A stretch of DNA of 38,570 nt. Source: Gelidibacter salicanalis (GTDB lineage Bacteria; Bacteroidota; Bacteroidia; Flavobacteriales; Flavobacteriaceae). Shown here piece by piece: positions 36,310 to 38,275 of this stretch. Made by a program: the position numbers and the translations under genes. The number at the start of each line of letters is the position of its first letter. Position 1 is the first letter of the stretch. The DNA is taken from NCBI RefSeq assembly GCF_016469035.1, contig NZ_JAEHJZ010000004.1, forward strand, positions 365,159 to 403,728, written 5' to 3'. The notes below the pieces were generated by a model that saw only the letters and a program-made list of their open reading frames with translations, had not been told where the DNA came from and ran no database searches.

Positions 36310-37650
36310 ATGGAATTTATTATTAAAATTTCTCAATTTTTATTGAGTTTGTCCCTTCTCATCGTATTGCACGAACTCGGACATTTTATACCAGCAAGAC
36401 TATTCAAAACACGCGTAGAAAAGTTCTACTTGTTTTTTGATATCAAATACAGTTTATTCAAGAAAAAGATAGGCGATACTGTTTATGGCATCGGGTGGTT
36501 GCCACTTGGAGGTTATGTAAAAATAGCCGGAATGATTGATGAAAGCATGGACAAGGAACAGATGGCCTTGCCGCCACAACCTTGGGAGTTTCGCGCTAAG
36601 CCGGCCTGGCAACGTTTAATTATCATGTTGGGTGGTGTAACGGTCAACTTTGTATTGGCGCTACTTATTTATATCGTTATGGCGTTTGCCTATGGTGATA
36701 CTGATATTTCTGCAGCAAGTATTAAGGACGGTTATTTGATTGATAATCCGCTATTGATCGATTTAGGTTTTCAGACTGGTGATGATATCGTGAAAGTTGG
36801 AGACACCAAGGTTGTTAACTATTCAGATGTGAACACCAATATCATAGGTGCTGAAACAGTAACAATTGAGCGTAATGGTGCTGAGCAAACGATTACGTTG
36901 CCTGAAGATTTTTTAGGACAATTATCGACGAGCAAGCACGAGGGATTGTTCAGCATAAGAAAGCCCTTTTTAGTAAATGCTGTAAGTGATACGTCGTTAA
37001 ATAAATCGGCAGATTTGAAGAAAGGCGATTTGGTGAAGTCTATCAATGGTAAATCAGTTGAATATTTTGACCAAGCTGAAGACGTTTTAAAGTCGTTTAA
37101 AGGACAAACCGTTGCCACAGAGATTGTAAGAAATGGCGAATCTAAGCGTATTGATCTACAAGTTGATGATACGGGCAAATTGGGTGTAGAAGTTGGCGGA
37201 TCATATAATGATATTGCCGCGCTAGGTTATTTTGACATTGTCAGAAAAGAATATACATTTGGTGAAAGCTTCGGAATTGGTCTTAACAGATTTACAAGCC
37301 AAATAACAGGTTATTTTACGCAATTGAAACTCATATTCAGTCCGAGTACGGGAGCTTACAAAGGGGTAGGTGGGTTTAAGGCCATCTTTGATGTCTTTCC
37401 AAGCACTTGGAGCTGGGAATATTTTTGGGGCATTACAGCGTTCCTTTCAATCATGCTCGGAGTGTTGAATTTATTGCCAATTCCTGCTTTAGATGGAGGA
37501 CATGTGATGTTTTTACTTTACGAAATGATATCAGGACGCACACCCTCAGAAAAGTTTTTGGAGCGTGCACAATTGGTTGGATTCGTGATTCTCATCATGT
37601 TAGTATTGTTCGCCAATGGGAATGATATTTTTAAAGCGATAACGGATTAA
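36310..37650 (+). CDS. rseP: RIP metalloprotease RseP (site-2 protease)
   Basis: 446 residues from the ATG at 36310 (MEFIIKISQFLLSL). The open frame extends 11 codons upstream, but a promoter box at 36272 lies there. HELGHFIPARLF at about 21-32 is the zinc motif in the first membrane segment, and NLLPIPALDGGHVMFLLYEM the LDG motif near the end. Two PDZ domains cover about residues 120-310 (GDDIVKVGDTKVVNYSDV and KKGDLVKSINGKSVEYFDQ). It cuts anti-sigma factors or signal-peptide remnants inside the membrane. Confidence 0.96.
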   Translation: MEFIIKISQFLLSLSLLIVLHELGHFIPARLFKTRVEKFYLFFDIKYSLFKKKIGDTVYGIGWLPLGGYVKIAGMIDESMDKEQMALPPQPWEFRAKPAWQRLIIMLGGVTVNFVLALLIYIVMAFAYGDTDISAASIKDGYLIDNPLLIDLGFQTGDDIVKVGDTKVVNYSDVNTNIIGAETVTIERNGAEQTITLPEDFLGQLSTSKHEGLFSIRKPFLVNAVSDTSLNKSADLKKGDLVKSINGKSVEYFDQAEDVLKSFKGQTVATEIVRNGESKRIDLQVDDTGKLGVEVGGSYNDIAALGYFDIVRKEYTFGESFGIGLNRFTSQITGYFTQLKLIFSPSTGAYKGVGGFKAIFDVFPSTWSWEYFWGITAFLSIMLGVLNLLPIPALDGGHVMFLLYEMISGRTPSEKFLERAQLVGFVILIMLVLFANGNDIFKAITD

Positions 37651-37667
37651 AAATATTTCAAAATTGT

Positions 37668-37698
37668 TTTGTTCAATTCAAAAATAGCAATATATTTG
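37668..37698 (+). promoter_or_regulatory. Promoter of the tRNA-Asn/GIY-YIG unit
   Basis: TTTG at 37668-37671, 19 bases, TATATTTG at 37691-37698. An almost ideal Bacteroidota promoter. Transcription would start near 37705, reading the broken tRNA piece, the GIY-YIG gene and then the intact tRNA-Asn. Confidence 0.65.
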
Positions 37699-37720
37699 CA
37701 ACCTCAAAATAGGTAATATA

Positions 37721-37767
37721 CCTTCCTCCTTAGCTCATCCCGATAGCTATCGGGAGGTTAGAGCATC
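37721..37767 (+). pseudogene. 5' fragment of tRNA-Asn, broken in the D arm
   Basis: CCTTCCTCCTTAGCTCA is identical at 37721-37737 and 38080-38096 (5' half of the intact tRNA plus 3 flanking bases). After an 18-base palindrome in place of GTT, GGTTAGAGCATC (37756-37767) matches 38100-38111. The match stops before the anticodon arm. It cannot make a tRNA. Confidence 0.85.
37738..37755. repeat. Perfect 18-base palindrome inside the tRNA fragment
   Basis: TCCCGATAGCTATCGGGA replaces the GTT of the D loop. Perfect self-complement. A related hairpin lies at 4089-4105. Such TCCCGA palindromes are common dispersed repeats in flavobacteria. Confidence 0.75.
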
Positions 37768-37794
37768 GGAGAGAAAACGTTCTTTAATAAAAAA

Positions 37795-38079
37795 ATGAAT
37801 TGTGTTTACATCTTGTATTCTGAGAGCCTTGACAAATATTATGTTGGAGAGGCATCAAATATAGATGAACGGGTTGAACAACATAATTCTGGTTTTTATA
37901 ATACTGCTTTTACTAAACAAGTTTCTGATTGGAAATTATTCCATGTCATGGGTTGCGAGGATAGAGTTCAGGCGAGAAAAATAGAAACACACATCAAAAA
38001 AATGAAAAGCAAAACTTATATTCAGAATTTGAAAAAATATCCTGAAATATTAGAAAAGCTTAAAAGTAAATATAATTAA
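37795..38079 (+). CDS. GIY-YIG nuclease family protein
   Basis: 94 residues, all one GIY-YIG domain: CVYILYSESLDKYYVGEASNIDERVEQHNSG (the YIL...YYVG core with the conserved arginine), then DWKLFHVMGCEDRVQARKIETHIKKMKSKTYI, where the glutamate in RKIETHIK is the metal ligand. It is the YhbQ/UPF0213-like stand-alone type. It lies between a broken tRNA-Asn 5' piece and the intact tRNA-Asn, 3 bases before the latter, and is expected to be in the same transcript. A nuclease acting on DNA or RNA; the target is not known. Confidence 0.92.
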   Translation: MNCVYILYSESLDKYYVGEASNIDERVEQHNSGFYNTAFTKQVSDWKLFHVMGCEDRVQARKIETHIKKMKSKTYIQNLKKYPEILEKLKSKYN

Positions 38080-38082
38080 CCT

Positions 38083-38156
38083 TCCTCCTTAGCTCAGTTG
38101 GTTAGAGCATCTGACTGTTAATCAGAGGGTCCTTGGTTCGAGCCCAAGAGGAGGAG
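38083..38156 (+). tRNA. tRNA-Asn (GTT)
   Basis: Acceptor stem TCCTCCT with AGGAGGA, D arm GCTC-AGTTGGTTA-GAGC, anticodon stem TCTGA-CTGTTAA-TCAGA with anticodon GTT, T arm CTTGG-TTCGAGC-CCAAG, discriminator G. CCA is not encoded (GCA follows). All four stems pair without mismatch. A strong terminator follows. Confidence 0.97.
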
Positions 38157-38163
38157 CAAACAA

Positions 38164-38192
38164 AGAGTTACATGAAAATGTAGCTCTTTTTT
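38164..38192 (+). terminator. Terminator behind tRNA-Asn
   Basis: AGAGTTACAT (38164-38173), loop GAAA, ATGTAGCTCT (38178-38187), a 10-bp stem with one G-T pair, then TTTTT. Rho-independent on the plus strand. Confidence 0.85.
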
Positions 38193-38275
38193 GTTTTTTG
38201 GTGGTTCCACATTCTTCTATCTTTCTAAATTATAGAACACTTTTCCAATTCCATAAGCAACTGACGGCTTTATTT

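What the first reader, a model, noticed from the sequence alone, without database searches (positions are those of the whole stretch)
37668..38192. GIY-YIG nuclease gene lodged in a duplicated tRNA-Asn, under the tRNA promoter
Seen: a near-ideal promoter, then 5' tRNA-Asn sequence (17 exact bases plus 12 more after a palindrome), then a GIY-YIG gene, then the intact tRNA-Asn, then one terminator. The two tRNA copies are 359 bases apart at the 5' end. Inference: the unit inserted into, or duplicated, the 5' half of the tRNA and rebuilt the intact tRNA behind it, so the nuclease rides on pre-tRNA transcription. A homing-type element or a tRNA-linked regulatory or defence device are both possible. 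I know of GIY-YIG genes next to tRNA genes in flavobacteria, but not of a defined system.
Basis: partly seen in the sequence, partly recalled or inferred. Interest (0 to 1): 0.7.

Follow-up and report, generated by a model that had tools for sequence, protein, structure and literature searches.

The report
Nuclease gene lodged in tRNA genes
A tiny DNA-cutting-enzyme gene sits wedged between a broken, hairpin-tagged piece of a tRNA gene and the intact tRNA gene, and the same layout recurs at many different tRNA genes in many relatives, which looks like an undescribed kind of minimal selfish genetic element.

Summary
Window 37668-38189 holds a promoter-like site, 5' tRNA-Asn sequence (18-base exact repeat, then nt 18-29 beyond an 18-base palindrome), a 94-aa GIY-YIG ORF, the intact tRNA-Asn and a terminator. 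The same site in the 10 genomes of the genus (own included) is occupied in 1, empty in 4, ORF-less but scarred in 5. It belongs to a large family: of the 80 best relatives kept, 65 have a tRNA within 800 bp, the nearest always on the ORF's strand; 57 of 64 testable loci carry a partial tRNA on the ORF's far side. Two mirror layouts exist: 5' fragment-ORF-tRNA, and tRNA-ORF-3' fragment. The fragment often carries a palindromic hairpin in a loop or in place of an arm. Nuclease phylogeny tracks palindrome class and tRNA isotype beyond shuffles. ORFs are under purifying selection; tandem arrays reach 7 copies. Best reading: a minimal selfish, homing-type nuclease element that captures tRNA genes while leaving one intact. 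Cleavage, copying and the hairpin's role are inferred. Nine searches of an open-access library listed no description of it. Closest precedents: phage SegB (tRNA-linked GIY-YIG) and REP/RAYT (enzyme paired with palindrome).

The parts
37668..37698 (+). Promoter-like site TTTG-19-TATATTTG of the tRNA-Asn locus; the same leader precedes the tRNA directly in empty congener G005
   Evidence: only one in 37601-38200, + strand
37720..37737 (+). 18-base exact repeat: 4 bases of leader plus tRNA-Asn nt 1-14 (5' fragment, left part)
37738..37755 (+). Palindrome TCCCGATAGCTATCGGGA in place of D-loop nt 15-17 of the fragment
   Evidence: 41 copies of its 16-base core in the genome
37756..37767 (+). GGTTAGAGCATC = tRNA-Asn nt 18-29 (5' fragment, right part)
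37779..37787 (+). GTTCTTTAA, resembling a boxA antitermination site (label recalled); GTTCTT(T) retained in the 5 scarred alleles
37795..38079 (+). GIY-YIG nuclease ORF, 94 aa; residues Y5, Y16, G18, R26, H30, E64 invariant in 12 aligned relatives
   Evidence: dN/dS 0.13 against L062; AF2 mean pLDDT 88
38083..38157 (+). Intact tRNA-Asn (GTT); one match at E<=1e-20 in each of the 10 genomes of the genus, own included
38162..38189 (+). Terminator-like hairpin with T run

Best explanation
A minimal selfish, homing-type element of the bacterial chromosome. The unit is a small (about 80-100 aa) GIY-YIG nuclease plus its class of palindrome plus one duplicated part of the host tRNA gene, so that one intact tRNA is kept. 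SHOWN by sequence: presence, absence and decay of the unit at one orthologous tRNA; ORF bracketed by tRNA sequence, with 5' and 3' versions; palindromes in tRNA loops or in place of arms of the dead copy; nuclease clade linked to palindrome class and tRNA isotype; purifying selection; tandem arrays. INFERRED: the nuclease is translated from the tRNA transcript; it cuts DNA of its tRNA isotype at or near an arm or loop; break repair from an occupied copy (DNA arriving from another cell) installs the unit; the palindrome marks or inactivates the dead copy; repeats between dead and intact copies allow clean excision (empty alleles) or tandem growth.
For: Occupied (1), empty (4) and scarred (5) alleles at the same tRNA-Asn site in the 10 genomes of the genus, not clustered on the flank tree: 4 changes, shuffled mean 4.2, as low in 309 of 500; empty G004 is sister to scarred G006 at 99/99. 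65 of 80 relatives have a tRNA within 800 bp, the nearest on the ORF's strand in 65 of 65. Far-side tRNA fragment beats the best of 200 shuffles in 57 of 64. Over all fetched loci 153 of 201 ORFs have a nearest tRNA within 800 bp, all 153 on the ORF's strand. Isotype changes on the nuclease tree 24 against 76-91 shuffled. Catalytic residues kept. 36 non-overlapping pairs, pooled pN 0.088, pS 0.392. Arrays of 7 (one partial) and 5 copies in G188 and G154. Only 1 relative in viral contigs, so it is not mainly a phage gene.
Against: No cleavage was or could be tested. In the 3'-fragment layout the intact tRNA keeps both its leader and terminator, so simple homing gives no reason why the resident tRNA is not cut. 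Clade-isotype tracking would also follow from long vertical inheritance at one tRNA. The far-side fragment beats the best tRNA of another isotype in only 38 of 64 loci, because short fragments resemble several tRNAs. 15 of 80 loci showed no tRNA to ARAGORN, 48 of 201 ORFs none within 800 bp. Empty alleles could be never-invaded or cleanly excised; the data do not separate these. The best-80 selection favours close relatives.
Confidence: 0.5

Rival explanations
1. RAYT-like system: the nuclease acts on its own palindrome, not on the tRNA as such. It mobilises or maintains a dispersed palindrome family, and tRNA arms, being hairpins, are merely good landing places.
For: Hairpin class changes 11 times on the nuclease tree against 50-57 shuffled, and 9 against 17-27 when shuffled within isotype. 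G000 alone holds three nuclease clades, each with its own palindrome. Genomes with the K1-type nuclease carry CCCGAWAGCTWTCGGG more often: 17 of 22 against 37 of 177, p 2.5e-7; counting by hand only carriers that have copies beyond those at the element, 11 of 22, p 0.006. GIY ORFs without a tRNA in L006 and L001 lie inside arrays of local repeats.
Against: Many genomes carry the palindrome without a K1-type nuclease (37 of 177; G119 has 54 copies), and 5 of 22 carriers lack it. 15 of the 16 dispersed loci examined, of 41 copies, hold no tRNA. At one dispersed site the palindrome, with variants, is present in 8 of 10 genomes of the genus and absent in 2, which could be loss. Related genomes are not independent.
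Confidence: 0.27
2. tRNA dosage device like phage SegB: nuclease-made breaks drive tandem amplification of the linked tRNA, which helps the cell survive tRNA-cutting toxins or defences.
For: SegB of T6, a GIY-YIG enzyme, amplifies a tRNA-Tyr segment in tandem (PMC13096335, abstract, passages and section 10 seen). Arrays and intact tRNAs on both sides of the ORF (L085, L098, L117, L130) occur here.
Against: In the arrays printed there is one intact tRNA and the other copies are partial or hairpin-bearing, so tRNA dose does not rise; the tRNAs of the G188 and G154 arrays were not examined. The ORF is absent from the Asn site in 9 of 10 genomes of the genus.
Confidence: 0.11
3. Host regulatory or tRNA-processing gene whose co-transcription with the tRNA is the point; fragment and hairpin are a leader structure.
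For: One promoter-like site before ORF and the only tRNA-Asn found; boxA-like motif kept in scarred alleles; purifying selection.
Against: Gene absent in 9 of 10 genomes of the genus at this site; layout mirrored in the 3' version; same unit at many unrelated tRNAs; ORF-less remnants persist.
Confidence: 0.07
4. Satellite of a tyrosine-recombinase integrative element with att sites in the tRNA.
For: The 3' layout (intact tRNA, insert, 3' tRNA piece) resembles attL/attR (recalled).
Against: No second gene in the 300-400-bp units printed; the start of the 3' piece varies (about nt 24 to 64 in Asn); 5' version common; hairpins inside the repeats.
Confidence: 0.03

Closest known systems
SegB, GIY-YIG free-standing homing endonuclease of phages T4/T6 (PMC13096335)
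   Same: GIY-YIG nuclease linked to tRNA genes; tandem segments of tRNA plus nuclease
   Different: Here on bacterial chromosomes, mainly Bacteroidota by record titles; tRNA gene partly duplicated around the ORF, dead copy with hairpin, fixed strand, clade-specific palindrome and isotype; only 1 relative in viral contigs
REP palindromes with RAYT transposases (PMC2817692, PMC3733652, PMC3116915; seen as search listing only)
   Same: Enzyme paired with a short palindrome that is dispersed in the genome and found beside the gene (partly recalled)
   Different: Enzyme is GIY-YIG, not an HUH/Y1 transposase; palindromes beside the gene sit in tRNA-derived sequence
UPF0213-like small GIY-YIG proteins (PDB 1zg2, 1ywl)
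   Same: Nearest solved relatives by sequence, E 4.5e-8 and 3.2e-5; similar size
   Different: Those are, by recollection, stand-alone genes without tRNA pieces or palindromes
Hairpin elements of mitochondrial genomes (sponge RHE, PMC2800124; listing only) and Rickettsia palindromic elements (recalled)
   Same: Short, apparently mobile hairpins; Rickettsia ones are also found in RNA genes (recalled)
   Different: No nuclease gene paired with them, as far as I recall

Membership tests
GIY-YIG nucleases | GIY-YIG domain with catalytic Tyr, Arg, His, Glu | tested here: met
   PF01541 E 8.7e-14; residues invariant in 12 aligned (that these are the catalytic ones is recalled); model mean pLDDT 88
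Free-standing homing elements | Orthologous sites exist with and without the gene | tested here: met
   1 occupied, 4 empty, 5 scarred of 10
Free-standing homing elements | Nuclease cuts the empty allele and is copied in by break repair | not testable with these tools
   needs biochemistry and transfer assays
Free-standing homing elements | Insertion destroys the target in the occupied allele | tested here: inconclusive
   5' layout: leader-to-D-loop stretch is changed in both copies; 3' layout: intact tRNA keeps leader and terminator
REP/RAYT | HUH/Y1 transposase domain | tested here: not met
   Pfam scan at E<=0.001 gives only GIY-YIG and weak T5orf172
REP/RAYT | Enzyme clade paired with a dispersed palindrome class | tested here: met
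   pairing; dispersal tested for one class only:
tRNA-integrated elements (tyrosine integrase) | Integrase gene in the element | tested here: not met
   the window unit and the printed units hold one ORF, GIY-YIG
SegB family | Phage-borne | tested here: not met
   1 relative among 575 pattern stretches in viral contigs, against 351 in genome contigs
SegB family | Tandem amplification of tRNA with nuclease | tested here: inconclusive
   arrays exist, but in those printed the extra tRNA copies are partial or hairpin-bearing

The most novel reading that the evidence does not exclude
Bacteroidota carry a categorically new class of mobile unit: GIY-YIG nucleases that, like RAYTs for REPs, are each dedicated to a palindromic hairpin, and that place this hairpin in the loops or in place of arms of tRNA genes while duplicating enough tRNA to stay harmless. 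The dispersed palindromes of these genomes would then be the footprint of GIY-YIG enzymes, a transposase-free way of spreading DNA hairpins.
Probability: 0.3. Interest if true: 0.93.

Novelty: new variant of a known kind. Interest (0 to 1): 0.8.

Why it matters
If the unit moves by homing, it is among the smallest self-sufficient selfish elements known to me, and it targets an essential tRNA gene without destroying it. It would explain some of the unexplained short palindromes and small GIY-YIG genes in Bacteroidota, and offers nuclease-target pairs (tRNA isotype, palindrome) that can be tested one by one. It also warns annotators: ARAGORN called some of what I read as hairpin-bearing dead tRNA copies selenocysteine tRNAs.

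Tried and rejected
Chance or misreading: rejected by recurrence and by allele comparison. Phage gene: 1 viral relative only. Palindrome as random dispersed insert unrelated to the gene: not favoured, because hairpin class follows the nuclease tree even within one isotype. Palindrome copies confined to tRNAs: rejected, 15 of 16 dispersed loci examined (of 41 copies) hold no tRNA. The L016 dispersed site gave no full-length orthologue in the other genomes of the genus, only partial matches. Fold search for structural relatives: not available. The 12-row alignment was too diverse for a collection scan, so 5 closer rows were used; hence the 80-locus survey covers mainly the K1-type clade. One search printed the wrong place for G004 (contig edge); one search corrected it, and there G004 had its own label in the change count; one search repeated the count with G004 as empty. 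The nuclease tree has 96 columns for 169 rows, and many forks are open; only label clustering is used from it. The Fisher tests treat genomes as independent, which they are not; the cut-off for a K1-type carrier (A2 profile E below 1e-22) was chosen by me on seeing the list; the 11 of 22 count was made by hand from a truncated place list, inferring copies away from the element where the copy number exceeds the nuclease hits. Hairpin classes were set by my own regular expressions after seeing the data: 164 of 201 ORFs received a class, 37 none. In one search, 95 of 162 hairpins were anchored on both sides in a tRNA; the other 67 were not, and some of the 95 rest on 5-base anchors and may be spurious. 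ARAGORN calls with anticodon tca were left out.

Full report
WHAT IS THERE. From the left: promoter-like TTTG-19-TATATTTG; 18 exact bases shared with the start of the tRNA (4 leader bases and nt 1-14); an 18-base palindrome TCCCGATAGCTATCGGGA in place of nt 15-17 of the D loop; nt 18-29; a boxA-like GTTCTTTAA (label recalled); a 94-aa GIY-YIG ORF; the intact tRNA-Asn; a terminator-like hairpin. No other TAnnTTTG lies between 37601 and 38200 on the + strand, and the genome shows one tRNA-Asn match at E<=1e-20, so this tRNA is probably transcribed through the nuclease gene.

ALLELES. All 10 genomes of the genus (own included) have one such tRNA-Asn with an alignable upstream flank, the end of an rseP-like gene (gene name by eye). 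In G002, G004, G005 and G007 the leader joins the tRNA directly: empty. G005's leader from the -7 box on equals the window's leader before the fragment, and its 3' flank through the terminator equals the window's. G001, G003, G006, G008 and G009 have no ORF but 115-155 bases from the -7 box to the tRNA, with a GTTCTT(T) motif and the AATTAACCT junction; G003 keeps, by eye, a stretch like the ORF's last codons, and G008 keeps the 5' fragment with a slightly altered palindrome. On a tree of the 940-base upstream flank the three states need 4 changes; the shuffled mean is 4.2 and 309 of 500 shuffles are as low, so the states are not clustered by descent; empty G004 is sister to scarred G006 at 99/99. 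This fits repeated gain, decay and loss, or gain and clean excision.

FAMILY. In the window's own genome the tRNA-Ala locus carries two tandem units of the same design, with a different palindrome in the D loop. A Pro-type ORF with a stop inside lies after tRNA-Ser at a contig end. An ORF-less 5' fragment with the window's palindrome stands before tRNA-Trp. Of 60 genomes searched with the window protein (own included), 15 match at E<=1e-6, with many tandem pairs. Two mirror layouts exist: A, 5' piece-hairpin-ORF-intact tRNA (Asn, Ala, Pro, Arg); B, intact tRNA-terminator-ORF-hairpin and 3' piece (Asn, Met, Phe, Val, Arg). 65 of 80 have a tRNA within 800 bp, the nearest on the ORF's strand in all 65; one of them, L130, also has a tRNA on the other strand 221 bp away. 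In the other 15 ARAGORN found none; many of those show tRNA pieces to the eye. 64 were testable for a fragment on the far side: 57 beat the best of 200 shuffles; 38 beat the best tRNA of another isotype. Layouts: 19 A, 45 B. Over all fetched loci, 153 of 201 ORFs have a nearest tRNA within 800 bp, all on the ORF's strand, and 48 have none. As a rough control, 18 of 19 other 1.6-3.2-kb loci of the same genome, brought in by the palindrome or by longer GIY-YIG proteins, hold no tRNA.

HAIRPIN. 162 palindromes near ORFs were examined; 95 have tRNA-matching flanks on both sides. Examples: the D loop (14|18 in Asn; 22|23 with no base lost in Ala, Arg and Met), the anticodon loop (35|41, Met), the variable loop (45|51, Asn), the T loop (56|62 Phe; 68|72 Leu), or an arm replaced (28|46 in Pro and Val; 50|67 in Pro). 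On a tree of 169 nucleases, palindrome class changes 11 times (142 rows; 200 shuffles 50-57) and isotype 24 times (130 rows; 76-91). On the 107 rows with both labels, palindrome changes 9 against 17-27 when shuffled within isotype, and isotype 17 against 42-51 when shuffled within palindrome class. Thus each enzyme clade tends to go with a palindrome class, and at a finer level with a tRNA. Outside the units the window's palindrome is dispersed: 41 copies in G000 against 0 of the reversed control. In 199 family genomes 54 carry CCCGAWAGCTWTCGGG; K1-type carriers (22, A2 profile E below 1e-22, cut-off mine) have it in 17, the other 177 in 37. At one dispersed site it is present, with variants, in 8 of 10 genomes of the genus.

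SELECTION AND AMPLIFICATION. The residues of the GIY-YIG active site are invariant in 12 aligned proteins. 36 non-overlapping pairs, closest first, give pooled pN 0.088 and pS 0.392; window against L062 dN/dS 0.13. Arrays: G188 seven copies (one partial) at about 381 bp, G154 five at 391 bp, G034 three at 304 bp. Some loci have ARAGORN-intact tRNAs on both sides of the ORF (L085, L098, L117, L130).

MECHANISM. The allele states, multiple tRNA targets, a kept catalytic site and the retention of one intact tRNA fit a selfish homing-type element. What cuts what is not shown. For layout A a target spanning leader and D loop would exist only in the empty allele: the fragment is broken by the hairpin and the intact copy has another leader. 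For layout B this argument fails, a real weakness. The palindrome pairing suggests the alternative that the palindrome is the enzyme's own substrate, as REPs are for RAYTs. GIY-YIG restriction enzymes are known (PMC1952068, listing only); that some read palindromic sites is recalled.

KNOWN OR NOT. Nine full-text searches of an open-access library: none of the listed papers describes GIY-YIG/tRNA-fragment/palindrome units in bacteria by title or abstract start. The lists were capped (8-20 shown of up to 1,624 hits), one search found no paper, and subscription papers and preprints were not covered. SegB (PMC13096335; abstract, passages and section 10 seen) is the nearest functional precedent: a phage GIY-YIG enzyme linked to tRNAs that drives tandem amplification of tRNA-Tyr, with co-localisation across phages.

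VERDICT. Anatomy and family: near certain. Homing-type selfish element: about even. RAYT-like palindrome system: a serious rival, and the most novel reading.

Noticed in passing
L032:1340-1640 (G000 contig C232): tRNA-Trp is preceded by an ORF-less 5' tRNA-Trp fragment with TCCCGATAGCTATCGGGA in its D loop: a further unit of this genome without a nuclease gene (decayed or non-autonomous).
   Followed up: partly
L002/L003 (G000:C325 about 82,900-83,600): tRNA-Ala with two tandem units, each with palindromes in the fragment; the downstream ORF's stop codon lies inside the tRNA 5' end.
   Followed up: yes
L006:900-2400 and L001:900-2500: GIY-YIG ORFs in loci without a tRNA lie inside arrays of local repeats, in L006 with inverted copies on the two sides; RAYT-like surroundings.
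   Followed up: partly
L038, L041, L049, L055: ARAGORN calls tRNA-SeC (tca) in what appear to be hairpin-bearing dead copies of tRNA-Val: probably an annotation artefact.
   Followed up: partly
L012-L026 (G000): Dispersed CCCGATAGCTATCGGG copies partly lie in larger shared repeats (L019, L022, L023, L025 share flanks; L018 and L021 share flanks).
   Followed up: no
L152 (viral contig, match at 10-234): The only viral-contig relative lies at the end of its contig, perhaps a prophage border at a tRNA.
   Followed up: no
G119: 54 copies of CCCGAWAGCTWTCGGG in a 2.6-Mb genome with no A2-profile nuclease at E<=1e-12.
   Followed up: no
L143:1799-3010: A tyrosine-recombinase-like ORF (by eye; family not scanned) follows the scarred tRNA-Asn in G001, as if an integrative element uses the same tRNA 3' end.
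   Followed up: no
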